Origin: Deltaproteobacteria bacterium
Lineage (GTDB): Bacteria > Myxococcota_A > JAADFL01
NCBI GenBank assembly: GCA_013152945.1
Contig: JAADFL010000092.1
Location: 1-41,033, forward strand
Direction of reading: 5' to 3'
DNA length: 41,033 nt
The notes under the pieces were generated by a model, which worked only from the letters and a program-made list of their open reading frames with translations, was not told the origin of the DNA and searched no databases. Both the position numbers and the translations under genes were made by a program. Below are positions 3,453 through 23,692 of this stretch, in pieces (the stretch's first letter is position 1; every line of letters starts with the position of its first letter).

Positions 3453-4589
3453 TCATCGGCAGGCATCCAGAAACTCCATCAACACCGGCGTGATTAGCTG
3501 GTCGTTCGGATCTCCTATTGCCTGGTTTACTTCCGAGTGGCTGAGCGTTGGCGTGTGCAAAAGCTTGGTGCGGCATCCGGCTTTGTTCAGCAACTCAACG
3601 AACTGCTCGCTCATCTGGACGCGGGAGTCCTGCCCGCGGGTTACCACAAAGAAATCGGGAATGCCCTTGCCGGCGTGAACATGGTTCATTGGCGATGCAT
3701 CGTCCCACACGGCGGGGTCGTTGCCGAAGGCGTTGCGATACATCATCTCAGTTTTTTTGTTCTCGTTCTCTATTCGTTCCCGGACATCGTAACCTGCTGT
3801 GTCCAAAGATACGGTACAACGGATATCGTGCAGGTCCATATCATGCTCTTTGAAAAACTGTTCGTTCGTGGAAAGGGCAGATACAATGGCTGCGCCTGCC
3901 GAGTGCCCCATTAAAACCATTCGGTTCGCATCTCCGCCGTACTCGGCGACATGCTCGCGCAGCCATGCCACGGCTGCAGCCACATCCTGGTTGTGGACAG
4001 GGTACTTTATCCGGCCGGGATCGAGTTGTGCCGGGTCTGACGGAATGTCCTTGGGTGAAAGCCTGTAATTTACGCTTGCCAGCACCCAGCCCGAGCCGTT
4101 GAACAAGGTTATCTTGGCCTGTAGTTGGTTTTTCTTGTCACCGATTGTCCAGCCACCACCATGGACCCAAACCATAACAGGGGCAGGCCTACAACCAGGG
4201 TCCAGTACAGGCTCGTACAGGTCCAGGGACAACAGGTTTGGATCCACTCCCTGGGCTTCGAGGTACTGTTTGTCGAGATGCTTTACCGTTCCGCCGGCCT
4301 GCTTGCAGTCCGGCCTGGAATCAGAGCCTGTGTCGGTATCTGCATCCGTATCAATGTCGGTATCCGTATCAGTGTCGGTATCCGTATCAGTGTCGGTGTC
4401 TGCATCAGTGTCGATATCCGTATCCAGGTCTGAGTCTGTATCGATATCCGTATCGGTGTCTGTATCAATGTCTGTGTCGGTATCCGGCCCCTTGGATGTA
4501 TTCCCTGACCCGCACGCCAAAAAACCGAATACCAGGCAGGTTGATATCAAAAGAGACACAATTGATATTCCTCTCTCGATTACTTGCAT
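3453..4589 (-). CDS. Lipoprotein alpha/beta hydrolase (carboxylesterase-like) with Asp-Thr spacer
   Basis: A 378-residue exported lipoprotein. It has a type II signal peptide with lipobox GFLAC (Cys26), then an Asp-Thr tract (residues about 36-87), then an alpha/beta-hydrolase domain of the HSL/BD-FAE type. Motifs are HGGGW (143-147, oxyanion hole), GHSAG with nucleophile Ser230, a GQDSRV segment with the acid and LSHSEVN with the catalytic His, so the triad looks complete. It probably hydrolyses ester bonds outside the cytoplasmic membrane; the substrate is unknown. I chose the ATG at 4589 because AGGTG lies 6 bases upstream; a GTG three codons earlier is possible. The gene lies 132 bases upstream of the CoA-transferase fusion on the same strand, but the two are functionally unrelated. 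Confidence 0.85.
4329..4484 (-). repeat. Hexanucleotide (GAYACN)n tract encoding an Asp-Thr spacer
   Basis: About 26 consecutive six-base units encode alternating Asp and Thr, with occasional Ile, Ala, Ser or Leu replacing Thr. Because the unit is six bases long, slippage changes spacer length without a frameshift. The tract follows the lipidated Cys of the esterase lipoprotein. Confidence 0.9.
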
Positions 4590-4758
4590 TCTCTTCACCT
4601 GTTCCCGGAAAGAAATAAGTTTACTTCATTGTCCCGGCCTTGTTGTCCCGGCCTTGTTGTGGCTGCAAGTCGGGAACGAAATACATAATACTATCAAAAC
4701 AACCGGGTACGGAAAAGGTTTCGGCCAAAGATAAAAAAAAGCTCCGGCTCCGGTGGTT

Positions 4759-4771
4759 CCAGGTTGATTTT
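4759..4771 (-). repeat. AAAATCAACCTGG dispersed motif, copy 2
   Basis: The minus strand reads AAAATCAACCTGG followed by AACCACCGG. It is intergenic, between the phospholipase-like and esterase genes. A tandem 15-base TGTCCCGGCCTTGT-type duplication lies nearby at about 4628-4657. Confidence 0.55.
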
Positions 4772-4842
4772 TTCATGCCCACCCGGTCCGGCGGTGTCCC
4801 GGGAAGGCAACTTCAGACAAGGTAATTCAAGGAAAATACGTT

Positions 4843-5835
4843 TTATCTATTTCCACGTCTTGTTTTTCTTTTACCGGCAGGCACTATGAACTTTAAAGGA
4901 TCTGGAGGCTCCAGTTGGTTTTCCAGGCCTGCTTCAAGAGCATCTCGAAAAGCCATTGAAAGGCCCTTTATATTGAGCCTTAAAAAAATTTTCCGCCTGC
5001 TCCATCGCCTCAATGTGCGCCTTATTCTTTTGGCTTCCAAGATAGCGTGGCCTCCGGTGGGATCAGCCCTCATGGCGATAGACCTCTGTGGTGATGCCAG
5101 CGCTTCAAGCCCGAGGCCTACGCTCTTGTCCATGTAGTAGGAAATGTCCGGCCTTGTGAGATGAATCACGTCGAGTGAATAGCCAAGCCTTTTCATGCCG
5201 TTTCGCCAACCAGTGCTGCGTTGGAGCCTGGCAAGTCCCTGTATAATGCGCTGATTTGCAAAGAAGGGAAACAGGGTGTCGCTGAAGGCCTGTTTGTGAA
5301 GGTTGTCAAGAGATGTATTGGCCATTTTGGAAAGGCGCTTTACTTGTTTGAAGGCCCGGTGAGGCATGTGAGTATCAAAGCCGGCTTCGAAAAAGGCATG
5401 GCCGGCTCCAACGATCCTGAAATTTTCGACCAGCAAAAGCGGGATGAACAGGTTGTGGCAGACAACGTCTGATGCAAGGTGAACCCTGCAACCAAGGGCG
5501 AATGCCCTTTCCTTTGGAGATGACGCCTTTGCCTCGAGCTTTGCCTCGAGTTTCCAGTTGTGGCTGTTTTTCGAATATCCCTTTATATTCTTGGCAAGTT
5601 GAAAATCGCATGCCAGCAATCCATAGAGGAATGCATCGGGAAACGCAGTCAGCAGAGTGGACAGAGACATGGGAAGGGAAGAGAGTTGACTAAGTATCTT
5701 GAGGCCTATTTCTATGTGTGTACCTGGTGCCCATGCCATGGCCTCGAAGGGGAAGAGCAGGATGACCAATACCGACAAAGTTGCACCAATCAATACGAGC
5801 ATCAAAGTGTTCTCTTTCCCTTGCCGGACCTGCAC
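4843..5835 (-). CDS. Zinc-dependent phospholipase C family protein, exported
   Basis: A 330-residue protein with a signal peptide ending AMA (32-34), so the predicted mature N-terminus is Trp35. In clostridial and Bacillus zinc phospholipases C the mature N-terminal Trp is itself a zinc ligand. The other expected ligands are present: His40 (PGTH), Asp67 (FPDAF), His92 (SHNW), the HxxxDxxxH pair at His119/Asp123/His127, and a later HxxxE (GHAFFE). The metal site therefore looks complete. Expected role is hydrolysis of a phospholipid or other phosphodiester in the periplasm or outside the cell; the substrate is unknown. The GTG start at 5835 keeps a basic N-terminal region (Arg4, Lys7); the ATG at 5802 would give a signal peptide with no positive charge. 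It diverges from the lamin-tail lipoprotein gene at 6022. Confidence 0.8.
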   Translation of the reverse strand: MQVRQGKENTLMLVLIGATLSVLVILLFPFEAMAWAPGTHIEIGLKILSQLSSLPMSLSTLLTAFPDAFLYGLLACDFQLAKNIKGYSKNSHNWKLEAKLEAKASSPKERAFALGCRVHLASDVVCHNLFIPLLLVENFRIVGAGHAFFEAGFDTHMPHRAFKQVKRLSKMANTSLDNLHKQAFSDTLFPFFANQRIIQGLARLQRSTGWRNGMKRLGYSLDVIHLTRPDISYYMDKSVGLGLEALASPQRSIAMRADPTGGHAILEAKRIRRTLRRWSRRKIFLRLNIKGLSMAFRDALEAGLENQLEPPDPLKFIVPAGKRKTRRGNR

Positions 5836-6021
5836 AAGATTTCCAAGCCCTAAATCCTACCCGGACTTTATACAATATTCGGGCTCAACGTGCCACAACT
5901 TGAAAACATTCGTACAAGCTGGTAAACGGGAGGCACAAGTTTTGTTTGCACCAGGGATCAAATTTGGTACCTCACGTATTTTGAAATTCCTTTTCGCTTT
6001 TTTGGGGAGGTATTCGGCGCA

Positions 6022-8190
6022 ATGAAAATTTCTATTAAAAAGGTGTTATTTCTTGTCTGGTTGCTCATTGGACAGGTCGTAATGGTTTCCTGTTCCAGTG
6101 ACACAGGATCATCTGGCAGAGATGCAGATACCGATACCGACACCGATACAGACATCGATACTGATACCGACACCGATACTGATACCGACACCGATACTGA
6201 TACCGACACCGATACCGACACCGGTACCGATGCAGATACCGACACCGATACAGACACCGATACCGATACAGACACCGATACAGACATCGATACCGATACA
6301 GACATCGATACCGATACCGACACCGATACCGACGCCGACACCGACACCGATGCCGACATCGATATAGATACCGACACCGACACAGATACCGATACAGATA
6401 CCGACCCGCATGTGGTGGTGACTGACGGGAAAGTTCCCAGGGGAACGAGGAGATATCCAGTAACGATACTTGCTGATTCCAATATCTTCAGTGAAGGCAT
6501 GGTCGAGATTGCAATCCAGGGTAATGGGCAAGGTAATGTGGATATCGATATACGGCATATAGCCGTCAAGTCAGGTGATGAGTTGCAGGTGTTCCTGGAT
6601 GTCCATGAAGATGCCTTGCTGGGCAAGCGACAGGTGGAGATAACTCCCAGACCTTTTTGTAAGTTGAAGGTTCAAATAGAGATCGTCGAGAGTCTTGAGG
6701 CGCAACATCCGATAATTGCAGAGGTGCTGGCAAAAACACGTTCGAACGACATAAATAGGGAGTACATGGAGATATACAACCCTACTTCAGAGAACCTTGA
6801 CCTGGACGGGTACTCGATAGAGACTCCTTATGCGACTCACATCATTGACAAGGCAAACGGAAGAACCGGCATGAAGCCAGGACAACGATTGGTGCTTGGT
6901 TCCAGCACTGACCCCAAGATAAACGGTTATGCAAAGGTGGAATATGCATGGGACCAGGGCTTTGAATTGCCCCACAAGGGTGACGGCGCGATTTCACTGT
7001 CGGATCCCGGTGGCAACACAGTGGACAGAATGTTTTTTTATGAGATGTCAAAGGTCGGGGGCGTGGCAACAGAGAGACAAACCGGCCGCTCTTTTACCGG
7101 AGGTGTTCAGACTGCAGTAGTGCCCGTAGCATTCCTGGAGCCGCTGGGTTATTACCAGGATGACCTCGGGACCCCGCACAAGCCGGATAGTATCGAAATA
7201 CCAAGAGAAGCAATCGACTTGCAGGATCCGGCCACTGGCAGGCTTGACGGATCGGATGAAGTCTGCACACATGAGGTAATGCTTCAGGCAGGCAGGATAT
7301 TTGAAATAGTCGGTGACGTGGACAGGGTGTCTGGAGATTGCAATCTGTTCCTGTCCTTGATTGACGACACTACAGGCCTTCCTGTATTGCCGAGAGACTT
7401 CAAAGACGAAATCACCATGGACTACAGGTTGATACTGTCGCCAAGTTACGACCTTGCCGGTACGGTCCAGGTTTCAGCAGATCCTGACTATCCTTTTGAG
7501 CCTGGTTCGTACGAGCTGTCCATCCATGCCATGGACACCCTGGTTGCTTCGCCGGGCAAATTGCTGCTCCTTGAAGGTGATTCAGCGGACGTATCTGTTA
7601 CAGGCGCATTCTCGGCCGATCCTGATTCGCCTGACATTACCTTTTCACAGGGTGAACTCGTTTTCGTATCTGATGACGAATCCGTGGCCCAGGTGGACCA
7701 GGATGGAAAGGTCACTGCAAAGGCAGTAGGAGCGACATCGATACAAGTATCCTATGGGACAGGGAGTGACGAGGTATCTCTTGTGGTTCCGGTGCAAGTG
7801 GCTCCTACCGGAGAAAACGATACCTGCACCAGTGCGATTCCCCTGGTTCCCGGCGCAGAGCCGCTTGCTGGTTCCACCTTCAATGCTTCGGACGACTATG
7901 ATGCCCAGGGGTGCATGTTCAACAAGTTTGCTCCGGAAGTCGTGTATTCCCTTCATACCGAGACAAAAGCCGATTTCAGGATAACTGTCGAGCCTGCAAT
8001 GGACTATGATCCCGCCGTGTACGTAATGTCTGATTGCGATATACCCAGGGTCGAGGCATGCACAAAGCTCCAGGGAAGTTCTGAAACGGAGAACCTGGAT
8101 ATTTCCATGCCTGCAGGGGCCACGTGGTACGTGGTGGTTGAAGACGAGGTAACTGCGGGAAAGTTCTGGATATCAGTTGGAGCCATCTAG
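6022..8190 (+). CDS. Lipoprotein with long Asp-Thr spacer, lamin-tail and Big2 domains
   Basis: A 722-residue surface lipoprotein. The signal peptide ends at lipobox VMVSC (Cys24). Residues 34-128 are an almost pure Asp-Thr repeat. A beta-rich segment follows (about 130-225), then a lamin-tail domain (about 232-345: IIAEVLAK, EYMEIYNPT, LDGYSIET, GQRLVLGSS). Next come another beta region, a Big2-like Ig domain (about 510-595: ADVSVTGAF, DESVAQVDQDGKVTAKAVG) and a C-terminal PPC-like beta domain (about 600-722). Lamin-tail and Big2 modules are typical of secreted nucleases, hydrolases and adhesins, and no catalytic domain is visible here, so a binding or scaffold role is inferred. The ATG follows GGGGAGG at about 11 bases. 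The long tract probably holds the domains away from the membrane. Confidence 0.8.
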   Translation: MKISIKKVLFLVWLLIGQVVMVSCSSDTGSSGRDADTDTDTDTDIDTDTDTDTDTDTDTDTDTDTDTGTDADTDTDTDTDTDTDTDTDIDTDTDIDTDTDTDTDADTDTDADIDIDTDTDTDTDTDTDPHVVVTDGKVPRGTRRYPVTILADSNIFSEGMVEIAIQGNGQGNVDIDIRHIAVKSGDELQVFLDVHEDALLGKRQVEITPRPFCKLKVQIEIVESLEAQHPIIAEVLAKTRSNDINREYMEIYNPTSENLDLDGYSIETPYATHIIDKANGRTGMKPGQRLVLGSSTDPKINGYAKVEYAWDQGFELPHKGDGAISLSDPGGNTVDRMFFYEMSKVGGVATERQTGRSFTGGVQTAVVPVAFLEPLGYYQDDLGTPHKPDSIEIPREAIDLQDPATGRLDGSDEVCTHEVMLQAGRIFEIVGDVDRVSGDCNLFLSLIDDTTGLPVLPRDFKDEITMDYRLILSPSYDLAGTVQVSADPDYPFEPGSYELSIHAMDTLVASPGKLLLLEGDSADVSVTGAFSADPDSPDITFSQGELVFVSDDESVAQVDQDGKVTAKAVGATSIQVSYGTGSDEVSLVVPVQVAPTGENDTCTSAIPLVPGAEPLAGSTFNASDDYDAQGCMFNKFAPEVVYSLHTETKADFRITVEPAMDYDPAVYVMSDCDIPRVEACTKLQGSSETENLDISMPAGATWYVVVEDEVTAGKFWISVGAI
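6121..6405 (+). repeat. 285-bp hexanucleotide (GAYACN)n array encoding Asp-Thr
   Basis: This is the longest of four such tracts in the window. It encodes residues 34-128 of the lamin-tail lipoprotein. Third positions vary (GAT/GAC, ACC/ACA/ACT), and Ala, Ile or Gly sometimes replaces Thr. The array is therefore old or selected at protein level rather than a recent expansion of one unit. Confidence 0.95.
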
Positions 8191-8720
8191 AGTTCAAAAT
8201 AACAAGTTCAACATTGGCAGCTTTGTAAAAGGCCGGAACATGAACTATGCATCCCATGAAATTTCAAAAGAAACACCCGAAAAAACACGAAATTTGTTGT
8301 TCCATGAAGTAAACCTCGAATTTTTGCCAAGCCATGGACGTTTTACAGCGAAAATACCTCTGCCGTGGTTTTCATTGGTGTTTCCCAATGTGGAATTCTG
8401 TTTCAAGAGCCTTTGATTATTCAAATTCTTTTCAAATTCATCTCTAATGAATGGGTCCCTCACGATTTTCGAAATACAACAGGAGCATTAAATAGACACT
8501 AACGTAAAATAACATTATAAATCATGCAGAATCGAGAACGTTTGACATAATGGGGCATTTGTTGGTAAGAAGACCCAGATTTATTTGAATTGAGCTGGGG
8601 GTGCAAGCAACAGATAATATCGGGCAGTTATTAAAGTAGCACCCGCACCAGTGATATCATGTATGTTCGATGTAACATGTATTCTAGAGGATTGTCAGTG
8701 TTCCCGGTAGGGAGGTGGCC
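8191..8720. other. Intergenic region upstream of the hisD-like gene
   Basis: No gene is supported. The left part holds the 119-bp palindromic element (8216-8334). The right part is AT-rich and precedes the hisD-like gene. It contains an imperfect operator-like inverted repeat, ATGTT (8663-8667), 6-base loop, AACAT (8674-8678). It ends in the ribosome site GGGAGG at 8710-8715. No convincing -35/-10 pair is visible, although a TTGACA lies near 8541. Confidence 0.45.
8216..8334. mobile_element. 119-bp palindromic (MITE-like) dispersed element, copy 1
   Basis: The left arm (8216-8249) and right arm (8288-8334) are imperfect inverted repeats separated by 38 bases. A second element at 16574-16692 has exactly the same length and layout, and its left arm agrees at 27 of 34 positions. 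A right-arm-only relative lies at 10171-10217. No transposase is encoded, so this fits a non-autonomous miniature element or a large REP/BIME-type palindrome. Confidence 0.65.
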
Positions 8721-10160
8721 ATGAGGGTTGTAAAGAGCAAGGATATCGATTCAGGTCTGTTCCAGCGTTATTCACCTGAAGAATCGAACAGGGTAAAGGC
8801 GATCATTGCCGGAGTCAGGAGGAGCGGCGATCGAGCCTTGAGGGATTTTTGCAGGGAGTTCGATGATGCGGTAATCGACGAGATAAAAGTGCGTAAAGAG
8901 GAGATAAAGGGTGCTTACGATCTGATTGAGGCAGGTGTTATGGAGGCTATAAAGGTGGCTGTGTCCAGTGCAGCCAAGATAGCCCAAAAGCAACTCAAAT
9001 CCATCAAAGGCTTTTCATTGAAAGATAAGGGCCTGACCTTTGAAATGAGAGTGAATAGTATTCGACGGGTTGGTTGTTATGTTCCGGGCGGAGCCAGGCC
9101 CTTGCCGTCTACGGCGGTGATGCTTGTTACCCCGGCAAAAGCAGCAGGTGTCGAAGAGATTGTCTTGTGTACGCCCCCAAAAAAAGATGGATGCATCGAT
9201 CCGACAGTGATGGTTGCGGCGGACATGGCCGGTGTTACGGAGATATACAGAGTGGGAGGTGCCCAGAGCATTGCCGCCATGGCCTATGGAACCGAATCCA
9301 TCAAACCCGTCGACATGATAGTCGGTCCTGGAAACAGGTACGTCCAGGCAGCCAAGCGCGAGGTTTTCGGCAGGGTTGGAGTGGAATTCCTGACCGGTCC
9401 GAGCGAGATCTGTATCGTGGCGGATTCCTCTGCAAACGATGAAATCGTTGCCCTCGATTTGATAGCCCAGGCCGAACATGATCGGGATGCACGTATCATT
9501 CTGCTCACGGATAACGAAAGATTGGCCAGGTTCGTAGCTGAAAGGCTGGAAGAGCTGGCGGAAGAGATAGGAACCCGGGAAATACTTAGGCGTTCAGTCG
9601 ACAAGGGGCAGGCCATTGTGCTCGGCAGCCTTGATGAGGCCCCTGAAATTGCGAATAAACTGGCCCCGGAGCACCTGGTGCTGATGACTCGCAAGGGTAA
9701 ACGTTTTATCGAACAGTTCAAGGTATTCGGGACCATGTTTCTGGGCAGGTATGCCTCGGTGGCTGTAGGTGATTACCTGATAGGTCCCAATTATACGTTG
9801 CCGACCCAGGGCGGAGCCAGGTATTCGGGCGGACTTTCAGCACTTAGCTTTCTTCGTTTGTCAAATGTAGTTCAGGTTACAAAGGAAGGTTACGACAGGT
9901 TGTCCTATCCTGCGCAGAACCTGGCCAGGGTTGAAGGCTTCGATGGCCATTGGCGTTCGATAATGGCCAGGGCCAGTCAGGCGGCGAGGAAAAGGGCTGG
10001 TATGGACAAGCCCAGGGTATCCCCTGCCAAGACAAAGAAAGAAAAGAAAAAGACCAGGCGTGCCGGAAAACGGGCCATAAAGGCATTGAAAGGCGCCATT
10101 CCAAAGGGTAAAAAATTGCGCGCCTCGAATGCAATCAAGGGTTTCAAGCGGGGAGGATGA
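8721..10160 (+). CDS. hisD: Histidinol dehydrogenase family protein with Lys-rich C-terminal tail
   Basis: A 479-residue cytoplasmic NAD-dependent dehydrogenase homologous to HisD, which oxidises histidinol to histidine in two steps. Zinc ligands Gln250, His253, Asp351 and His410 and the catalytic Glu317-His318 pair (APEHL) are present, as is VGPGNRYVQAAKR. Two things are odd. The His that follows GPN in E. coli HisD (His367, GTNHVLPT) is Tyr358 here (GPNYTLPT). The protein also continues about 60 residues beyond the HisD fold as a tail rich in Lys, Arg and Ala (about 420-479). No other his gene is nearby. It may be a true HisD or a paralogue acting on another amino alcohol. The ATG at 8721 follows GGGAGG at 5 bases; the GTG at 8715 overlaps that site and was rejected. 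Confidence 0.85.
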   Translation: MRVVKSKDIDSGLFQRYSPEESNRVKAIIAGVRRSGDRALRDFCREFDDAVIDEIKVRKEEIKGAYDLIEAGVMEAIKVAVSSAAKIAQKQLKSIKGFSLKDKGLTFEMRVNSIRRVGCYVPGGARPLPSTAVMLVTPAKAAGVEEIVLCTPPKKDGCIDPTVMVAADMAGVTEIYRVGGAQSIAAMAYGTESIKPVDMIVGPGNRYVQAAKREVFGRVGVEFLTGPSEICIVADSSANDEIVALDLIAQAEHDRDARIILLTDNERLARFVAERLEELAEEIGTREILRRSVDKGQAIVLGSLDEAPEIANKLAPEHLVLMTRKGKRFIEQFKVFGTMFLGRYASVAVGDYLIGPNYTLPTQGGARYSGGLSALSFLRLSNVVQVTKEGYDRLSYPAQNLARVEGFDGHWRSIMARASQAARKRAGMDKPRVSPAKTKKEKKKTRRAGKRAIKALKGAIPKGKKLRASNAIKGFKRGG

Positions 10161-10170
10161 TCCGGCATAT

Positions 10171-10217
10171 CGAAACGCACTGTTCTATGAAGTTTCTCTC
10201 GACTTTTTGCAAAGCCG
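10171..10217. repeat. Right arm of the 119-bp palindromic element (partial copy)
   Basis: The sequence CGAAACGCACTGTTCTATGAAG matches 16646 onward with two differences in the first 22 bases. The following ACTTTTTGCAAAGCCG matches the arm end at both other copies. The left arm is not recognisable, because the hisD-like coding end occupies that place. It lies between the converging hisD-like and acetoacetate-CoA ligase genes. Confidence 0.55.
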
Positions 10218-10244
10218 TAAAACAAGGCGCCGGTGTCACGGGCT

Positions 10245-12194
<1,950 letters not shown>

Positions 12195-12330
12195 GGCTTG
12201 TTCCTCCTCTTTGTTTCCTATGCCGTTTCAACCAAGGGGTACTAGCAAAATAGAAAAGTTACTTCAAGATTTCGTGATTTGTGCTGTTTTTTCAACTCCC
12301 GGTTGTAGTATTCGAGTGGAATTATAATGG

Positions 12331-12918: not shown

Positions 12919-13099
12919 TTCAGCACCTCCAGGGTGTGCAAAATAGGCCAAAGCGTAAAAAGACTCAAGAGGCTGCTTGACAAAATATTTCTTGATAAGA
13001 TGTTTTCTTGTTTTTCAAGTACCCGGAATCATCCAACCCGTTGACCAACCCTTCAGCCTGTGTTAGCTCAACCGCACGTGACTTTGTTGGAGGAATACG

Positions 13100-15450: not shown

Positions 15451-15675
15451 TTTATTATTTTTTTTATTGCATGGTTGTCGGCACGGACTTTTATTGACAC
15501 GGACTTGACACCGCTATTTTCCTGCAATAGCTTTTTGTTTGAAAAGTGGAAGCAATCGCTTTAGTATTCAATCTTGGCAACAAGAGGTTCCCGGGATTTG
15601 GAATATTACAGTAGAAATGCCATTGCAAGGAAAGCATCGAGTGGAACGCAAAGACAGAAAAAAGGAGTTTTGAAA

Positions 15676-16506
15676 ATGAAGGTTTTAAGAGGTCACTTGT
15701 ATACTGTTACGATACGGGCAAGCTTATTTTTTGTTTTCATGTTGGCTGTCGCCTCGTGCGGCTCGGTTAGAAATTCAGGTGATACGGATACGGATGTAGA
15801 CACGGACACGGATACGGACACTGACACGGATATGGATACGGATACTGACACTGATACTGATACGGACACGGATACTACTCCAAAAGAACTTTCAATAAAA
15901 GATATACAGGACACCTCGAGCAAGGCGCACCCCAAGGAAGGCACGATAGTCAAGGTTAACGGCGTGGTAACAGTGGAGTCCGTGGTTTCAAAGGGACACA
16001 AGGCATATTTCATCGAGATGCCGAAAGGAGGGACTTACTCCGGAATATACGTATTCGGCGCATCCGATACACCCGATGTAACAAGGGGAGACGTTGTAAC
16101 AGTGACGGGAGAATACAAGGAGTTTTACGGTCGAACCGAGATAGATGCATCGAGTGTGGAAAAAACCGGCACTGATGCTGTTCCGGAAGCCGAAGTTGTT
16201 GTGCCTGCGGACGTTGCTACCACCGGATCAAAGTCCGAATCCTACGAGGGAGTCCTTGTCAAAGTTGAAAACGTCGAAGTAACAGAGACGCCTGTTATGG
16301 GATCGGACGGCAAGGACCATGGCGACTGGAGGGTGACCGGTGATCTGATTATCGGCCATTTATGGGATTATGCTTACAACAACAAGGATAAGGATCTACG
16401 CAAGGTGGGTGACAAGTTTGCTTCGATTACCGGGATCCTGGACTTTACCTTTGATGAATTTCGGCTTGAACCCAGGGATGACGCAGACCTTGACGGACCT
16501 AAATGA
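15676..16506 (+). CDS. OB-fold lipoprotein (YhcR-type) with Asp-Thr spacer
   Basis: A 276-residue exported lipoprotein. The lipobox AVASC (Cys28) is followed by an Asp-Thr tract (about 36-67) and then by two OB-like beta domains (about 70-160 and 165-270). The first has the pattern GTIVKVNGVVT, AYFIEM, GIYVFG, RGDVVTVTGEYKEFYGRTEI, which resembles the OB-fold modules found beside secreted nucleases and phosphatases such as Bacillus YhcR. No catalytic residues are visible. A nucleic-acid or nucleotide binding role on the cell surface is inferred from the fold and from the 5'-nucleotidase-like gene directly downstream. The ATG at 15676 has AAAGGAG upstream; a longer frame from 15574 would bury the signal peptide. 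Confidence 0.75.
   Translation: MKVLRGHLYTVTIRASLFFVFMLAVASCGSVRNSGDTDTDVDTDTDTDTDTDMDTDTDTDTDTDTDTTPKELSIKDIQDTSSKAHPKEGTIVKVNGVVTVESVVSKGHKAYFIEMPKGGTYSGIYVFGASDTPDVTRGDVVTVTGEYKEFYGRTEIDASSVEKTGTDAVPEAEVVVPADVATTGSKSESYEGVLVKVENVEVTETPVMGSDGKDHGDWRVTGDLIIGHLWDYAYNNKDKDLRKVGDKFASITGILDFTFDEFRLEPRDDADLDGPK
15781..15876 (+). repeat. Hexanucleotide tract encoding an Asp-Thr spacer
   Basis: Sixteen six-base units of GAYACN type (with GTA and ATG variants) encode residues 36-67 of the OB-fold lipoprotein. Placement directly after the lipidated Cys is the same as in the lipoproteins at 3453 and 6022. Confidence 0.9.
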
Positions 16507-16573
16507 TGCGGCAACGGGGTATGCTGGAAAAACATATTTCATTTCACCCTGTTTACTGCGGACAACTATTATC

Positions 16574-16692
16574 GACAGCTTCGTAAAAAGTCGGAGCATG
16601 AATCATGGATGTTATGATTTTAATTAGAAAGACTGTCAATAAGATCGAAACGTACTATTCTATGAAGCCCTGCCCGACCTTTTACAAAACCA
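16574..16692. mobile_element. 119-bp palindromic (MITE-like) dispersed element, copy 2
   Basis: This copy has the same length and layout as 8216-8334: left arm 16574-16607, 38-base centre, right arm 16646-16692. The right arm contains TTCTATGAAG, and its ATG at 16662 is the best start of the 5'-nucleotidase-like gene. The other in-frame ATGs (16605 and 16614) are also inside the element, and no ATG, GTG or TTG follows in frame before the lipobox. Confidence 0.7.
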
Positions 16693-18584
16693 TAATTGTT
16701 TCTTTTCTTGTAATAACACCAGGCCTGCTTTCTTCATGCCGAGAGGCGGGAGAACAGTACAACCTGGCCGGCCAGGATGTAAGGCTGACTATTATACATA
16801 CATCGGATATACACTCGAGAATATTGCCCTACTCGATGGAGCCCGCATATACCGATGTATCCCTGGGTCTGGATCCGAGGCTCGGACCGTACGGCGGGGC
16901 GGAACGCATAGCACAAATAGTAGATGAACAAAGAGCCAAGGCAGGCAGGTGTTTGTACGTGGATACAGGTGACGTGTTTCAGGGCGCTCCGGTATTCAAT
17001 AGGTACAAAGGTGCTGTGGAGGTTCAATTTCTGAGCCAGCTTGGTGTTGATGTAATGGTTGTAGGCAACGAATTCGACTTGGGAGTAAACAACCTGGCAG
17101 CCCAGATGAACCAGTACAAGAACTTTCCACTGCTCGCGGCCAACTATGTCTTTCCACCCACGTCAGAGGGATTGTCCAACCTGCGTAACCTTGTAGACCC
17201 GTACAAGGTCTTCGACATCGATGGCCTGCTGGTTGGAGTAATAGGCATGGGCGACATAGGTTCGATCACCAGCCTTGAGGATCGTAAGAATTCAAGCGGA
17301 TTCTTTGCCCTTGACACGTATCAGACCGTGCAGAATTACGTGGATCTGTTGAGGTCCAGGGTAAATCTCGTGATCGTAGCTTCACACATGGGTCTTCAAG
17401 ACGATATAGACATGATAAGACACACCAGGGACATAGACCTCGTGCTGGGAGGACATCTACACATAGTTCTGAATCCTCCCATGGTGCTGCCCAATGCAGA
17501 CGGAAAAAGCACCATTCTCATGCATTCCGGCGCTTTCGGCAAGTATGTGGGGCGTCTGGATCTTGTAATTAGAGTTTCAGCGCAAGGACCGGGCAAGAGC
17601 CGGGTACTTGCTTTCAAGCACAAGCTTTTCCCGGTGGAGCAATACTCTGCAATCGAAGGCATTACCGACCAGCAATCGTGTTACCAGGCCGGCGGCGACA
17701 AGTGGCTCCCTCCGTCAGGCTGGGATAAAGGGGCCTGCCTCGAAAGGAATGCTACCGACGGTGATATGCGAAGGCTTCTCGAATACTATAGCCTGGATAT
17801 GCTCAAAAAGGAAAACTATGACAGGCCTGTCGCCTTTGCGCTGGAAAAGCTGAAGCGTTTCGGCGCATCCGGAGGTGATTCTGCACTGGGAAATTTGGTG
17901 GCTGAATCACTTCAAAGACGGTACCTGGTCGAAACTGATTTCGGATTGACGAATTCCCTTGGAATAAGGACGGACATCGACCAGGGGCCGGTAACCGTGG
18001 AAGCCATGTACAACGTATTTCCATTCGAGAACACCATAGTATCAATGTTCCTGTCAGGATCAGAGATTCAGGAGATGTTGGACTTTGTTGCAAGGAAGAG
18101 TGCCGCCAGGGGCTGCTCGGCCCAGGCGCAGGTGTCCGGAGTTTGCTTTACCATGAACTGCGCCCTTGAAAAGGCCGAGGACATCAGGTTTCCAAAGAAC
18201 GGTGAACCATGCTTCGACAAAAAAGGAAACCCTTTAGGGACGCCGCTCGATCAAAGAGATACTTATGAAGTGGCTGTCAATGACTATATTGCCGGCGGAG
18301 GCAGTGGATTCCGGGTTCTAAAGGCGAATAACACCAAGGTATATACCGGGATTTCCATGCGGGATGCGGTCATAGACTATTTCAATAGTTTTCCCATGTG
18401 CGGTAAAGATAAAAACGGCGATGGGAAATACTCACTGGATGAACTCGAGAAACCTGTCCAGGACTGGATCCAGGCCCAGCCTGAAAGTCAGAGGGATCGA
18501 TTAATCGACGACATGGCGCATGTTCCTTGTGTAACCGGCAGGTCCGACGGCCGTATCAGGGCTGTTACATCAGCCAAGGAGTGA
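16662..18584 (+). CDS. 5'-nucleotidase (UshA/YhcR-like) lipoprotein, catalytic His missing
   Basis: A 640-residue exported protein with lipobox LLSSC (Cys26). Residues about 40-300 are a calcineurin-type metallophosphatase: HTSDIHS (Asp49, His51), DTGD (Asp104), SHMG (His242), GGHLH (His265, His267). The third block should read GNHE but reads GNEFDLG (Asn136-Glu137): the bridging Asn is kept and the catalytic His is absent. Residues about 370-590 are the 5'-nucleotidase C-terminal substrate domain (LGNLVAESL, NSLGIRTDI, VFPFEN, GGGSGF). An EF-hand-like DKNGDGKYSLDE loop lies near 590. The family hydrolyses nucleotides or cyclic nucleotides outside the cytoplasm; this copy may be slow, altered or only binding. 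ATGs at 16605 and 16614 are alternatives. It lies between two OB-fold lipoprotein genes. Confidence 0.82.
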   Translation: MKPCPTFYKTIIVSFLVITPGLLSSCREAGEQYNLAGQDVRLTIIHTSDIHSRILPYSMEPAYTDVSLGLDPRLGPYGGAERIAQIVDEQRAKAGRCLYVDTGDVFQGAPVFNRYKGAVEVQFLSQLGVDVMVVGNEFDLGVNNLAAQMNQYKNFPLLAANYVFPPTSEGLSNLRNLVDPYKVFDIDGLLVGVIGMGDIGSITSLEDRKNSSGFFALDTYQTVQNYVDLLRSRVNLVIVASHMGLQDDIDMIRHTRDIDLVLGGHLHIVLNPPMVLPNADGKSTILMHSGAFGKYVGRLDLVIRVSAQGPGKSRVLAFKHKLFPVEQYSAIEGITDQQSCYQAGGDKWLPPSGWDKGACLERNATDGDMRRLLEYYSLDMLKKENYDRPVAFALEKLKRFGASGGDSALGNLVAESLQRRYLVETDFGLTNSLGIRTDIDQGPVTVEAMYNVFPFENTIVSMFLSGSEIQEMLDFVARKSAARGCSAQAQVSGVCFTMNCALEKAEDIRFPKNGEPCFDKKGNPLGTPLDQRDTYEVAVNDYIAGGGSGFRVLKANNTKVYTGISMRDAVIDYFNSFPMCGKDKNGDGKYSLDELEKPVQDWIQAQPESQRDRLIDDMAHVPCVTGRSDGRIRAVTSAKE

Positions 18585-18589
18585 AGACC

Positions 18590-20023
18590 ATGTCCAGTCG
18601 AACAACAATATTGATCCTTACAACAATGCTTGTCTTGTCTTCGGGGTGCGAGGAGTCTCTGTTCAACGAAATAGACTCGCCTGATTCGAGCAAGCTCAAG
18701 GTACTTTCGTCGTTTGCAGTCACGCTTCAAAGGGATGGAGGCCTCGGAACCGATGATAAACCGCTCCCTGCAGGCAATGAACCGACAGCCTTCACCTTGT
18801 CGGCGGCCGCCCTGCTTACGGATGGTTCGGTGCTCACATCTTTTAACCGTAAAGTCGCGATATCCGTCGAGCCCGGCAAGCTTTCAGCAGATTCACCGAA
18901 AGAGGCGAAATTCGTCAACGGGATTCTCAAAGAAGTGAATGTTTCAGTTCTCCAGGCCTTTGGACCCACGAGGATATGGGTCGAAGACACATTGGGTACA
19001 AGCGGCAGCTATGTTACGGGCGTGAGCGAGGGAATAATATTCAGCCCGGCGACGATACAATCAGTCCAGGAGTGTGATCGTGACAATGATCCTGTCTGCA
19101 ACGGGAAATCACCCAATTTTTTCCCTTCTCCGCTGAGGGATAAGTTCGTCAAGATGTACAGAAGCCGAAAATGCGGAGATCTCGTGGTAACGAACGTTAC
19201 GTCCGAAGGCTTTTTCGTAACTGATACATCCCAGGGTGAGTGTCCCGGCGCCGGGAACCAGGAACATGCCTTTGGTCATATATATGTATACAACCATTCC
19301 AGGCCGGAAGGGTTGCAGCGTGGTGACCGTCTGTGGTCGCTGGCAGGAAATGTGAGCGAGTTCTTCGGCCTCACCGAATTGGGATTCCCGACCTGGGAAA
19401 AGAAACCTTGTAACGAGAGAGTGGAGGGAGATACCTGGTACGAATGCAGGGGCGTGGTATCGAACAGTTCGCCGGACAACCCGGAAGATTATGCAGGTGG
19501 CGGGGGATATGTCGATTGTCCGCCTGGAAAGAAATGCTGTCCTCCGGACGAAATGCTGTTGGATATGGAAACGCCGGAATGCTCCGGTTCTGTATGCTAT
19601 GAAGCCGAGTGTGTGCCGTTCAATTGCAAAGGAACATCCTGTGGGCCGGGACAGGTATGCATGAAAGGGCGCTGTGAGGACAATCCCTATCTGCCTCCAC
19701 CGGTAATAGTGGAACCATCCAGGGTAAAGTCTCACTGGGAAATGGAAAAGCTCGAGGGCGCACTTGTGAAAATCGAAAATGTTGTTATTCAGCCTATCGA
19801 TTCCTCTGATTACGATCAATATGGTCAATGGAAGGTGATGATGTCGGATGGAAAAACCAAGATCACAATCGTAAGCCGTGAAACGGTCCCGAGCTTTCAT
19901 CCCGAACAGGAAACAGGCGCCTGCATCGACATAACGGGAAATCTTCGTTTCCACAGTGTTCCAAGGTGGCTTATCTATCCGCGTGACGATGTGGACATAC
20001 AAGAGGCAAAGGGCTGTCAATAA
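18590..20023 (+). CDS. OB-fold lipoprotein with Cys-rich insert
   Basis: A 477-residue lipoprotein with lipobox LSSGC (Cys20). An Ig-like beta domain (about 30-140) is followed by a first OB-like domain (about 145-265: GDLVVTNVTSEGFFVTD, RGDRLWSLAGNVSEFFGLTEL) similar to the domain in the lipoprotein at 15676. A Cys-rich segment (about 290-370: CPPGKKCCPP, CKGTSCGPGQVC) comes next, then a second OB-like domain (about 380-470: EGALVKIENVVI, ITGNLRF, PRDDVDI). No catalytic site is seen. The ATG at 18590 follows AAGGAGTGAAGACC, five bases after the nucleotidase stop, so the genes are in one operon. It probably binds nucleic acid or nucleotides, or docks the nucleotidase (inference). Confidence 0.75.
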   Translation: MSSRTTILILTTMLVLSSGCEESLFNEIDSPDSSKLKVLSSFAVTLQRDGGLGTDDKPLPAGNEPTAFTLSAAALLTDGSVLTSFNRKVAISVEPGKLSADSPKEAKFVNGILKEVNVSVLQAFGPTRIWVEDTLGTSGSYVTGVSEGIIFSPATIQSVQECDRDNDPVCNGKSPNFFPSPLRDKFVKMYRSRKCGDLVVTNVTSEGFFVTDTSQGECPGAGNQEHAFGHIYVYNHSRPEGLQRGDRLWSLAGNVSEFFGLTELGFPTWEKKPCNERVEGDTWYECRGVVSNSSPDNPEDYAGGGGYVDCPPGKKCCPPDEMLLDMETPECSGSVCYEAECVPFNCKGTSCGPGQVCMKGRCEDNPYLPPPVIVEPSRVKSHWEMEKLEGALVKIENVVIQPIDSSDYDQYGQWKVMMSDGKTKITIVSRETVPSFHPEQETGACIDITGNLRFHSVPRWLIYPRDDVDIQEAKGCQ

Positions 20024-20042
20024 TCAGTAAGGGAGTTATCAA

Positions 20043-21593
20043 ATGCAGACTCGTCCCTTGACAAGAATGTGGATATTTTCGTTTTTTGTTCTGTGTTATT
20101 TCCTGCCGCACATGGCTGTTGCCGGCGACTTCATGGACGTGAGGCTTTCATTCAAGTTCTTTGATGACGATTTTCTCCATGATTCAAAGGACGGCAGCCC
20201 GGGTATAGAGTTCGGAAGGGACGATTACTTGCTGCCAAGCGAGGCCTTTGGGAGCAAGTACACGGGAAGGGAAACCCAGGCCAGGCTGGTTCTGTACAAG
20301 AAGCTCGATGATCTCTGGCCGCGTCTTGTTACGGAAGCCGCCATCGTGTTGCGTTACAACGTGTTCGTCCCGGAAAGTGGAAAGGCATCCAATGCCGCTG
20401 TTGGCGTGGAGGATGACGGCTCGTACATCAGAGTTGCATATGCTTTCGATGATAGTAAGAAACCGCCGAGCCTGGCATTGGTGTTGTTTCCGTTCAGCTC
20501 CGACCGGTTCAGGCTGGGATATACCTATGACATCACTTGGGGCGGTCCTGATGCCTTCATAGAGGCGCAACGGGTGAGGCCTACCACGGGAGCCAAGCTC
20601 GAATACAAGAATGGTGAGAACTATGCTTTTGTGGGAGCCAAGTCAACAGAGGTGAACGTCAAACGTATCGGCCAGGGAGAAATTTCCACACCCGAGGTCA
20701 GGTGGGGCGGCCTGGCAGGCGGCGGGTACGATATCCTTGATATGGTCTTGCTGGAAGCAGGATGCGGGTATTTCAACAGGGGTGCTTTCACGCGGGAAAA
20801 TCCGGTCATGGGCAAGCCCATGCATTCATGGGGAATATCCGCCCGGGCAACTTATCATCTTGGTCAAAAGGTAGGACTTCCGGTCGACTTCAGGTTGTAC
20901 AGGAACAACCCGGAGGCCATCGAAGAGGCTGTCAAACCTGAAAAGCAAGCGTCGTTCGGCCTGATGGCCGGAATAGAGTACACGCACTTGGAACAGGTCC
21001 TGATCGACCCGGTCGTGTCCGGCGGAACTTCATGGCAGCCGGCTAATGCAGGCAACATTTTCATGAGGTTGAGACTTTGGAATTTCAGGGTCACCCTGGA
21101 CATGGTCTATAGGGATGTGGCCTTCCTTCAGTTCGATCAACCCAGTTTCGAAACCGAAACCGACTTTCATCCGGACTTCAAGCTGAAGCCCGAGCTTTTT
21201 GCTGTGGCCGGCGTGGATTACCATTTCGAGAGCATTCATGTGACACCGGGTCTGCTCCTGTCATACCAGAGACCTGCCAGTGTAAGCCTTCCGTCATTGA
21301 AAACGGAAGGAATGCAACCAATCGAAAAACCCACCGTGGTCGTCAGAAACCGGGGTGATTGGGATATCCTTCCCGCCGGTGACAGTGTGACCGCCATCTT
21401 GTCCAGCAAGCTGACTCTCAAGGTGCAATTGTCGAGCATGCTCACGGTTCTTGCAGAAGCATATCTGGCTATAGACAACAACAAGACACGCTATACATTG
21501 AAAGGCGGTGATTCCAATCCGGCGACGTGGACCAGGATTTACCAGGATCCTTACATATTCGGAGCAGGAATTATCTTTTTCGCCAAATTTTGA
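20043..21593 (+). CDS. Outer-membrane beta-barrel protein
   Basis: A 516-residue exported protein. A Sec signal peptide (MQTRPLTRMW start, cleavage near AVAG at about 28) is followed by alternating amphipathic beta strands throughout. It ends in IFFAKF, with the C-terminal Phe typical of proteins inserted by the Bam complex. It resembles porin or carboxyl-gated channel architectures, but no subfamily is recognised. The ATG has GGGAG upstream and lies 19 bases after the OB-fold lipoprotein stop. As the last gene of the lipoprotein and nucleotidase operon, it may carry the breakdown products across the outer membrane (inference). Its 3' end overlaps the oppositely directed protease gene by 23 bases. 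Confidence 0.8.
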   Translation: MQTRPLTRMWIFSFFVLCYFLPHMAVAGDFMDVRLSFKFFDDDFLHDSKDGSPGIEFGRDDYLLPSEAFGSKYTGRETQARLVLYKKLDDLWPRLVTEAAIVLRYNVFVPESGKASNAAVGVEDDGSYIRVAYAFDDSKKPPSLALVLFPFSSDRFRLGYTYDITWGGPDAFIEAQRVRPTTGAKLEYKNGENYAFVGAKSTEVNVKRIGQGEISTPEVRWGGLAGGGYDILDMVLLEAGCGYFNRGAFTRENPVMGKPMHSWGISARATYHLGQKVGLPVDFRLYRNNPEAIEEAVKPEKQASFGLMAGIEYTHLEQVLIDPVVSGGTSWQPANAGNIFMRLRLWNFRVTLDMVYRDVAFLQFDQPSFETETDFHPDFKLKPELFAVAGVDYHFESIHVTPGLLLSYQRPASVSLPSLKTEGMQPIEKPTVVVRNRGDWDILPAGDSVTAILSSKLTLKVQLSSMLTVLAEAYLAIDNNKTRYTLKGGDSNPATWTRIYQDPYIFGAGIIFFAKF

Positions 21594-23670
21594 ACAATCC
21601 CAGGACCAGTCCGAAGAACAACAGTCCCGCAATGTTCGAAGAAGAATTACCGGCAGCGGAACATCCACTGCCTGAACCCGGATGAGAATCGGAATCTGTG
21701 TCCGTGTCCGCGTCCGTGTCTACATCGGTATCTCCACCAGCCTTCCTGCACACGTCGTTTTGACACATGAACCCGTTTGGACAAGCAATCATGTCGCATC
21801 TTCTGGTACAGACCTTGTCCATGCAAAGGCCGCTCTGGCATTCTGCACCATTGGAACAGGCCTGTCCGAAATCCTTGCCCCCGTTGGGAAGACAGAGATC
21901 GCCGCGGTAAGTGCTCTCGCATGTCCACGAATCAGGACAGCCCACCATCTCGCAAGACCTGGTGCAGAAGTTTTCGTTGTCCTTTGAATAACAGATGCCG
22001 GATTCACATTGCTGGTCTGAAAGACAGTTTTCTCCAAGCCCCTTCTTTTTCGGGCCTGTGTCCGTGCCCGTATCCGTATCCGTGTCCGTGTCCGTGTCCG
22101 TGTCGGCATCTGTATCCGCATCGGCATCTGTATCCATATCAACATCCGTATCAACATCCGTATCGACATCCGTATCAGCATCCCCTGATGCGTGAAAACA
22201 AAACTGGCCTGCAGATACCTTGACACAATCAAAGCCTGCCGGACAGCCTATCATGTCACACTTTTGGGAGCAGTATAAAAAGGCTCCATTGGCAATGCAC
22301 TCCCCGGTTTTGCAATCAATTGCCTTGGTGCATGATTCACCCAGTGACTTGTCACCACGCGGCAGGCAGTGCGCAGTATCAATGTCGAAACAAAACTGGT
22401 CCTTGGGGCAATCCGAGTCATTGTTACATGTCCTGAAGCACTTGTGATAATCGCAATAAAGGCCGTTTTCACAGTCGGATGTCGAATCACATGGTTCACC
22501 TTCCTTGGCCTTGGGACCGGTCGACGGATAACACGTGCCATCGTCTGAACCTGCAAACGGCCTGCATTCGTACCCTGCCGGGCACTTGTCGTTGGAGGCG
22601 GTGCAATTCATGCTGCAGAACTTGCCGTTCGTTGAACTGTTGCAGATGCCGCTGGCGCAGTCGGCACCAGAATCACAATCATCGCCGAAGGGCTTGTCAT
22701 GGTTTCCACTGTCAAACCAGCAGTAATACGATCCGCCGGGCGTACCGCACCTATATCCGTTTGGGCATGGATTCGAGGCTGAGCAGGATCTTGAACACAT
22801 GGACCGCTGGGCGTCGGCAATGCACTTTCCCGACTTGCATTGGTCATCGGAATAACATCTTTCTCCAAAATCGAGTTCAGTCGCCGGCTTGATGTAATTC
22901 CCGAGAAAATTCCAGTTGGGAGCCGTTTGTCCGTAATACGCGTACCGCACACAGGATTGTTCGGACGTGGAAGCAGTGCCCAGCACGGTTGGTTCGCCGT
23001 GTAACATATATAGAGCCGGGCCGCCGGAGTCGCCGGAGCAGATGCCGGTGGAACCCTTGCCGTTGACCTCGATGTATGCGCTGGGCATTGCCGTCACCTG
23101 TAATGTCGTCCAGTACCGGTATGTGTTTTGTTGTGCATTCGGGTTGGTTATTCCATAGCCCACGGCCTGAAGATAGTTGCCTGAAAGATCGAGACTCTCG
23201 GTATTTACGGCAAGCGGAGTCACCCATGTAGGCACGTCTTTCTGTAACAATACCACGGCCACATCGTGGTCACCCCACTGGCTGCCCGAGTAACTCGGGT
23301 TGGCATGCCACTCGGTGGCGCTCGATGACCAGCGGGCACTCGAATAATCTTCACCGATGAAGAAGGTAACATCCTGGATATTCGATTCCTTTACGCAATG
23401 GGACGCAGTGAGAACCACGTTGGCTCCGACGACCGTGCCGGTGCAGGCCGCGCCGTACCCGCCGCCCATGTACATCTGCAAGGCGCCGATAGCTGCCTTT
23501 TGTCCCTCCGTAAGCTGTACAACCGACGAGTCGAAGTTGGTCGAGCCGTTTACAATGGCACCTTGTTTCCAGGCCAACCTGCCTTGGTCCGGCCCGCAAG
23601 CCATGAAAAATGTAATGGCAGTTAGGGCTGAAAGCTTGATGAAGCGGGATTTGACTCTGTTTCTTTGCAT
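21571..23670 (-). CDS. Trypsin-fold serine protease with Cys-rich repeats, Asp-Thr spacers and MYXO-CTERM-like tail
   Basis: A 699-residue exported protein. The lipobox-like FFMAC (Cys25) is followed by IVNG (39-42), an activation-type N-terminus. The S1 protease triad is His91 (TASHC), Asp136 (HDVAVV) and Ser215 (GDSGGP). Residue 209, which sets specificity in chymotrypsin numbering (189), is Gly rather than Asp, so Arg/Lys cleavage is unlikely. Five or more Cys-rich modules follow (C.SD.QC.SG.C..., about 270-640), broken by a 42-residue Asp-Thr tract and a shorter one near the end. The tail is GSGCSAAG, a hydrophobic helix and WRKR, like the MYXO-CTERM sorting signal. ATG 23670 is chosen because GGAGG lies 10 bases upstream. 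The 22-base gap after the secreted-protein gene suggests co-transcription. Confidence 0.88.
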   Translation of the reverse strand: MQRNRVKSRFIKLSALTAITFFMACGPDQGRLAWKQGAIVNGSTNFDSSVVQLTEGQKAAIGALQMYMGGGYGAACTGTVVGANVVLTASHCVKESNIQDVTFFIGEDYSSARWSSSATEWHANPSYSGSQWGDHDVAVVLLQKDVPTWVTPLAVNTESLDLSGNYLQAVGYGITNPNAQQNTYRYWTTLQVTAMPSAYIEVNGKGSTGICSGDSGGPALYMLHGEPTVLGTASTSEQSCVRYAYYGQTAPNWNFLGNYIKPATELDFGERCYSDDQCKSGKCIADAQRSMCSRSCSASNPCPNGYRCGTPGGSYYCWFDSGNHDKPFGDDCDSGADCASGICNSSTNGKFCSMNCTASNDKCPAGYECRPFAGSDDGTCYPSTGPKAKEGEPCDSTSDCENGLYCDYHKCFRTCNNDSDCPKDQFCFDIDTAHCLPRGDKSLGESCTKAIDCKTGECIANGAFLYCSQKCDMIGCPAGFDCVKVSAGQFCFHASGDADTDVDTDVDTDVDMDTDADADTDADTDTDTDTDTDTGTDTGPKKKGLGENCLSDQQCESGICYSKDNENFCTRSCEMVGCPDSWTCESTYRGDLCLPNGGKDFGQACSNGAECQSGLCMDKVCTRRCDMIACPNGFMCQNDVCRKAGGDTDVDTDADTDTDSDSHPGSGSGCSAAGNSSSNIAGLLFFGLVLGLFKIWRKR
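22057..22182 (-). repeat. Hexanucleotide tract encoding Asp-Thr, in a protease linker
   Basis: Forty-two residues of Asp-Thr with Val, Ala and Met variants, between Cys-rich modules of the protease. A shorter related tract (GGDTDVDTDAD) lies just before the C-terminal sorting signal at about 21675-21735. Here the spacer is internal and not next to a lipid anchor. Confidence 0.9.
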
Positions 23671-23692
23671 TTTTGAGATTCCTCCATGAAAA

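What the first reader, a model, noticed from the sequence alone, without database searches (positions are those of the whole stretch)
4329..22182. One hexanucleotide-encoded Asp-Thr spacer in four unrelated exported proteins
The esterase (3453), lamin-tail protein (6022), OB-fold lipoprotein (15676) and serine protease (21571) share no catalytic domain, yet all carry (GAYACN)n tracts encoding Asp-Thr. In the three lipoproteins the tract directly follows the lipidated Cys. In the protease it is an internal linker and precedes the C-terminal sorting signal. Six-base units allow length change without a frameshift, and silent third-position variation suggests selection on the protein. This could be a lineage-specific surface spacer: a calcium-binding or extended stalk, and a dense Thr target for O-glycosylation.
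Basis: partly seen in the sequence, partly recalled or inferred. Interest (0 to 1): 0.75.

Follow-up and report, generated by a model that had tools for sequence, protein, structure and literature searches.

The report
Asp-Thr repeat spacer in exported proteins
This bacterium, probably a relative of the myxobacteria, puts the same acidic Asp-Thr repeat, of very variable length, between the membrane anchor and the working part of perhaps a hundred or more otherwise unrelated exported proteins, most likely as an adjustable stalk; the same part is reused in several other families of its phylum.

Summary
The window has 31 (GAYACN)4 matches against 0.00 expected; the whole 4.84-Mb genome has 1,764 against 4 for the reversed pattern. 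In 1.24 Mb sampled, all 100 maximal runs lie in an ORF in the Asp-Thr frame, in 42 ORFs. None of 369 genes without a signal-like N-terminus has one, and 36 of 38 testable tract ORFs have one. Tracts sit just behind a lipidated-type Cys, between modules, or just before a MYXO-CTERM anchor. Selection is on the protein: D positions are 97.6% D, T positions 85% T (rest mostly I, A, V, S, M), while silent third bases are close to freely variable. Between two congeneric relatives, tract length differs in 15 of 15 matched comparisons, by an even number of residues in 14. The same OB-fold domain carries (DT)n here and mixed DG/DT/DS, (DPDT)n or thrombospondin-3 repeats in relatives. Best reading: an interchangeable, length-tolerant, acidic extended spacer, analogous to but unrelated to staphylococcal Ser-Asp stalks. 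It is not confined to this species: at least five families of the phylum use it. Calcium binding and O-glycosylation are untested.

The parts
4329..4484 (-). Asp-Thr tract (52 aa) of the esterase lipoprotein, starting 10 residues after lipobox Cys29
3453..4598 (-). alpha/beta-hydrolase (BD-FAE / Abhydrolase_3) lipoprotein carrying the tract
   Evidence: PF20434 1.8e-25, PF07859 1.5e-20
6121..6408 (+). Asp-Thr tract (96 aa) of the lamin-tail lipoprotein, starting 10 residues after Cys24
6022..8190 (+). LTD (lamin tail domain) plus Big_2 lipoprotein carrying the tract
   Evidence: PF00932 1.7e-11, PF02368 3.3e-8
15781..15876 (+). Asp-Thr tract (32 aa) of the OB-fold lipoprotein, starting 8 residues after Cys62 of the ORF
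15877..16506 (+). OB-fold-like domain (ExeM/NucH-type N-terminal region) behind the tract; homologues in relatives carry other acidic spacers
22069..22182 (-). Internal Asp-Thr/Asp-Val/Asp-Ala tract (38 aa) of the trypsin-like protease, between Cys-rich modules
21685..21732 (-). Second tract (16 aa) of the protease, next to its C-terminal anchor
21574..21675 (-). MYXO-CTERM sorting signal of the protease (GSGCSAAG + hydrophobic helix + KIWRKR)
   Evidence: TIGR03901 22.8 bits, over the curated cut-off of 20
21571..23727 (-). Trypsin-family protease with Cys-rich repeats carrying both tracts
   Evidence: PF00089 4.6e-18

Best explanation
The tract is a modular, acidic, extended or disordered spacer. 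It is placed between a membrane anchor (N-terminal lipidated Cys, or C-terminal MYXO-CTERM) and the folded cargo of many unrelated exported proteins, and sometimes between cargo modules. An Asp at every second residue alternates with a small or beta-branched uncharged residue (Thr, Ile, Val, Ala, Ser), which disfavours folding and keeps the chain extended by charge repulsion, so the cargo stands off from the membrane or its surface layer. Reach is set by length: 16 to about 140 residues, or roughly 5 to 50 nm if fully extended. Length changes by gain or loss of six-base units in frame and seems weakly constrained. Shown: presence, frame, export context, Asp constraint, silent saturation, length variation, exchangeability with other spacers. 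Inferred: extended conformation, surface location, stand-off function.
For: All 100 runs lie in the Asp-Thr frame, in 42 ORFs. Signal-like N-terminus in 36 of 38 tract ORFs against 345 of 714 other genes (p 2.7e-9); lipobox 30 of 38 against 110 of 714 (p 1e-16); 0 of 369 no-signal genes carry a tract. Typical placement is 6-20 residues after Cys, or next to a MYXO-CTERM. Cargo domains are unrelated: hydrolase, LTD, trypsin, PhoD, FGE-sulfatase, ASH/Ig, MopE, beta-helix. Non-D at D positions 2.4% against non-T at T positions 15.3%, p 7e-44; adjacent-unit differences per base of GAYACN are 0.009, 0.042, 0.483, 0.140, 0.211, 0.639. In congeners position is kept while length changes, e.g. 134/82, 84/54, 28/40 residues. 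The same OB-fold domain sits behind DT, DG/DT/DS, DPDT or TSP3 spacers in relatives. A single-sequence AlphaFold model gives no helix or strand in the tract, pLDDT about 32-47 (weak).
Against: Some tracts lie far from any anchor, between modules, so anchor stand-off is not the only use. Signal detection was a regular-expression and hydropathy heuristic, not SignalP. The AlphaFold model is poor overall (mean pLDDT 47). Nothing here shows surface exposure or an extended conformation. The preference for Thr over Ser or Gly is not needed for a mere spacer.
Confidence: 0.75

Rival explanations
1. O-glycosylation platform: the Thr residues are densely glycosylated, as the Ser of staphylococcal Ser-Asp repeats are by SdgA/SdgB, giving a protease-resistant mucin-like rod.
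For: SD repeats of Clf/Sdr proteins are heavily glycosylated and thereby protected from proteolysis (PMC3794999). In genome G243, Thr or Ser fills 96% of T positions and Ser outnumbers Ala and Ile, which single transitions would favour. The window encodes an STT3/AglB-like oligosaccharyltransferase and a family-2 glycosyltransferase.
Against: In the window's own genome about 12% of T positions are Ile, Val, Ala or Met and only 2% Ser. STT3/AglB enzymes glycosylate Asn (established knowledge), which the tract lacks. No SdgA/SdgB-type enzyme was sought.
Confidence: 0.25
2. Calcium-dependent rod: the Asp ladder binds Ca2+ and stiffens the spacer, as in thrombospondin type 3 repeats.
For: Asp is nearly invariant; Asn never appears at D positions in the own genome although one transition away. 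In relatives the same OB-fold domain is preceded by TSP3 repeats (PF02412, 8e-13).
Against: TSP3 and EF-hand loops need Gly and spaced Asp/Asn/Cys (established knowledge), absent here; Pfam finds no TSP_3 in the window's tract proteins. Charge alone also explains Asp conservation.
Confidence: 0.2
3. N-terminal sorting signal: acidic residues after the lipidated Cys route the protein to the outer membrane or the surface, like the Bacteroidetes lipoprotein export signal, or as disordered linkers do in Lol sorting.
For: About half of the lipoprotein tracts start within 20 residues of Cys. K-(D/E)2 near Cys exports lipoproteins in Bacteroidetes (PMC5080379); disordered linkers govern Lol trafficking in E. 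coli (PMC12826056).
Against: The same tract lies internally and next to C-terminal MYXO-CTERM anchors. Lengths of tens to over 100 residues exceed any such signal. Most lipoproteins of the genome lack it and are not clearly acidic there (p 0.2).
Confidence: 0.12
4. Neutral microsatellite: a hexanucleotide repeat that expands by slippage and is merely tolerated in exported linkers.
For: Length differs in 15 of 15 congeneric comparisons. One tract carries a 2-bp deletion that breaks its gene. Some other families have pure GACACG/GACACC arrays, sometimes not in the Asp-Thr frame.
Against: 100 of 100 runs are in one frame of six and none outside an ORF. First and second codon bases are conserved while third bases vary; D is kept far better than T. 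Neighbouring hexamers are no more alike than shuffled in the own genome (209 against 215) and less alike in G243 (99 against 194, sd 10).
Confidence: 0.03

Closest known systems
Ser-Asp dipeptide repeat (SDR) stalk of staphylococcal Clf/Sdr proteins
   Same: Long acidic Asp-hydroxy-residue dipeptide repeat between an anchor and a functional domain
   Different: Thr (with Ile/Val/Ala) instead of Ser; used in perhaps a hundred or more unrelated proteins, not one adhesin family; lipid or MYXO-CTERM anchors, not LPXTG; no known SdgA/SdgB
Disordered linkers of Gram-negative lipoproteins (Pal, RcsF, NlpD, LpoB)
   Same: Sits behind the lipidated Cys and can act as a length-dependent spacer (PMC12826056)
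   Different: Those linkers differ in sequence from protein to protein; here one dipeptide is shared genome-wide
Thrombospondin type 3 repeats (PF02412)
   Same: Asp-rich spacer; occupies the equivalent place before the same OB-fold domain in relatives
   Different: Has Gly/Cys-containing calcium-binding loops; the Asp-Thr tract has none
Intrinsically disordered region before MYXO-CTERM (e.g. TraA)
   Same: Low-complexity region just before a C-terminal sorting signal, as in the window protease (PMC11980579)
   Different: Here it is an Asp-Thr repeat, shared with N-terminally anchored lipoproteins
Bacteroidetes lipoprotein export signal K-(D/E)2
   Same: Acidic residues near the lipidated Cys
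   Different: Short and position-critical, whereas this tract is long and starts 8 or more residues downstream

Membership tests
Staphylococcal Clf/Sdr (MSCRAMM) proteins | Whole-protein match over the curated cut-off | tested here: not met
   matches of 19-60 bits lie only within the repeat, against cut-offs of 999-2500
Staphylococcal Clf/Sdr (MSCRAMM) proteins | Ser-Asp dipeptide repeat | tested here: not met
   85% Thr, 2% Ser at the second position; Ser richer (6%) in G243
Bacterial lipoproteins | Lipobox with Cys after an N-terminal hydrophobic segment | tested here: met
   esterase, lamin-tail and OB-fold proteins and 30 of 38 tract ORFs (heuristic, not SignalP)
Bacterial lipoproteins | Lipidation and membrane location | not testable with these tools
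   needs labelling or fractionation
MYXO-CTERM (TIGR03901), window protease | C-terminal motif over the curated cut-off | tested here: met
   22.8 bits against 20; 0 of 14 control genomes over the cut-off
Thrombospondin type 3 repeat | PF02412 match | tested here: not met
   none in the own-genome tract proteins scanned; present in relatives' homologues
O-glycosylated repeat | Glycans on Thr/Ser | not testable with these tools
   needs mass spectrometry
Bacteroidetes LES | Short K-(D/E)2 or Q-A-(D/E)2 near Cys | tested here: not met
   in the window lipoproteins the first residues after Cys ([25 protein letters not shown]) hold no such motif and the tract follows them

The most novel reading that the evidence does not exclude
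A phylum-level, genome-wide 'standard stalk': one dipeptide spacer, plugged into very many unrelated exported proteins at either type of anchor, whose reach changes quickly by in-frame six-base steps while codon choice keeps neighbouring units unlike (as in G243), and whose stiffness is set by calcium, making it functionally equivalent to thrombospondin-3 repeats used in the same place by relatives.
Probability: 0.2. Interest if true: 0.65.

Novelty: new variant of a known kind. Interest (0 to 1): 0.5.

Why it matters
Acidic dipeptide stalks and disordered lipoprotein linkers are known singly, but one identical low-complexity spacer shared by a large share of a genome's lipoproteins is unusual. 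It offers a natural length series for asking how linker length sets surface display and sorting. I found no paper describing it in the searches made, and the Pfam and NCBIfam scans gave no model for it. It also marks exported proteins in uncultured members of the phylum and probably explains some contig breaks in their assemblies.

Tried and rejected
The esterase domain has no close homologue in 15 relatives. The NCBIfam MSCRAMM hits are composition matches. A general acidic bias after Cys in tract-free lipoproteins was not significant. A repeat-peptide search of solved structures found nothing significant. The single-sequence AlphaFold model is too poor to settle conformation. A rough script for MYXO-CTERM loci read only one strand and was redone.

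Full report
Observation. The four tracts exist at the stated places and are not chance: 31 matches to (GAYACN)4 in the window against 0.00 in 100 dinucleotide-preserving shuffles. The whole genome, G000, has 1,764 matches against 4 for the same pattern read backwards.

Genome-wide anatomy. I took 1.24 Mb of the genome: parts of contigs C1-C32, C80-C100 and C150-C169, and the window. It holds 100 maximal runs of at least four units, 880 units in all. Every run lies in an ORF in the Asp-Thr frame. The runs fall in 42 ORFs, which extrapolates to roughly 120-155 genes in the genome. Among 38 ORFs whose start is inside the contig, 36 have a signal-like N-terminus and 30 a lipobox. Among 714 other genes the figures are 345 and 110 (Fisher p 2.7e-9 and 1e-16). 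None of 369 genes without a signal carries a tract. The two exceptions are a fragment at a contig end (L109) and an ORF whose N-terminus looks truncated (L082). The signal test is a heuristic that over-calls signals in the control genes, so the contrast is conservative.

Placement. In about half of the lipoproteins the tract starts within 20 residues of the Cys, after a short Gly/Ser-rich stretch. In others it follows a Cys-rich module. In several it lies near a C-terminal anchor: the window protease (MYXO-CTERM, 22.8 bits, cut-off 20), L059, L066, L106 and L171. Relatives show the same in L187, L192, L196 and L197. Cargo domains are unrelated: alpha/beta-hydrolase, lamin tail, trypsin, PhoD phosphatase, FGE-sulfatase, ASH/Ig repeats, purple acid phosphatase, beta-helix.

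Selection. In 1,335 units, the Asp position is non-Asp in 2.4% and the Thr position non-Thr in 15.3%, although Asp codons have more non-synonymous neighbours (p 7e-44). Thr is replaced by Ile, Ala, Val, Ser, Met and Leu, never by Pro, Lys or Arg. Adjacent units differ at the six bases of GAYACN with frequencies 0.009, 0.042, 0.483, 0.140, 0.211 and 0.639. So the protein is kept and the DNA is not. In G243 neighbouring hexamers are identical only 99 times against 194 (sd 10) in shuffles, with no run longer than three. In the own genome they are as alike as shuffled, 209 against 215. Recent single-hexamer slippage therefore leaves little trace. Excess identity at lags of 2, 4 and 6 units (own) and 3 units (G243) suggests duplication of longer blocks. 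Short-read assembly may hide long perfect arrays, so the depletion should be rechecked on long reads.

Length. Between congeners G243 and G364, fifteen matched comparisons were made; identity over the aligned protein is mostly 75-93%. The tract is in the same place in all, but its length differs in all 15, by an even number of residues in 14. Examples are 134/82, 84/54, 28/40, 62/50 and 97/105. The odd case is a pair with ambiguous partners (two G243 genes match one G364 gene).

Distribution. No other genome of the same class appeared among the relatives offered. In 377 genomes of the phylum, 123 have at least one DNA match. Counts are very uneven: 1,811 and 1,708 in two f41 genomes and hundreds in f22, f12 and f15, but zero in most. 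Low counts of pure GACACG or GACACC arrays in some families (G011, G332, G167) are not in a clear Asp-Thr coding frame, so DNA counts alone overstate the spread. In f12, f15, f22 and f41 the examples read are mostly lipoproteins with the tract behind the Cys. Distribution outside the phylum was not tested.

Exchange of spacers. The window's OB-fold domain has homologues in 14 of 15 relatives tested. Where the N-terminal side was read, the domain follows a lipobox Cys plus a DG/DT/DS mix (G243, G364), (DPDT)n (G028), or thrombospondin type 3 repeats (f22 and other genomes; PF02412 8e-13). The domain is kept and the spacer is swapped. This is the best direct evidence that the tract is a spacer, and it makes calcium binding worth testing.

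Interpretation. The tract works like the Ser-Asp stalk of staphylococcal adhesins and like disordered lipoprotein linkers, which can act as length-dependent spacers (PMC12826056). It is a member of neither family: the MSCRAMM models match only by composition and far below cut-off. Glycosylation, which protects Ser-Asp repeats (PMC3794999), is possible but unproven, and the own genome's tolerance of Ile, Val and Ala argues against a strict requirement. A sorting-signal role is weakened by internal and C-terminal tracts. A neutral microsatellite is effectively excluded.

Limits. No experiment bears on conformation, calcium, glycans or location.

Noticed in passing
L105:14858-17084 (-): A tract gene is split by a 2-bp deletion inside its Asp-Thr tract; signal peptide and cargo are in different frames. 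It could be a pseudogene, an assembly error or a phase-variable state.
   Followed up: partly
window 36917-39193 (-) and 39190-40401 (-): STT3/AglB-like oligosaccharyltransferase (best NCBIfam match is the archaeal TIGR04154, below cut-off) next to a family-2 glycosyltransferase.
   Followed up: partly
window 31073-32893 (-): Multi-spanning membrane protein with C-terminal TPR repeats, resembling (from memory only) TMTC-type glycosyltransferases; Pfam sees only the TPRs.
   Followed up: partly
window 33665-35689 (-): Protein with about seven 36-residue Cys-rich repeats (108-bp DNA repeats) and a C-terminal anchor-like motif resembling JDVT-CTERM/MYXO-CTERM (below cut-off).
   Followed up: no
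L037, L044, L046, L048, L051, L077, L088, L109, L110 ends: Tracts lie within 300 bp of the end of nine fetched contig stretches, so they probably fragment short-read assemblies and are under-counted.
   Followed up: partly
L185 (G363:C5): A lipoprotein of another family with Asp-Tyr repeats (DYDYDY) in the same place, hinting at further Asp-X dipeptide spacers.
   Followed up: no
window 24560-26200 (+): Lipase-like lipoprotein whose Cys is followed by a long Glu/Asp-rich non-repetitive region, another acidic spacer type.
   Followed up: no
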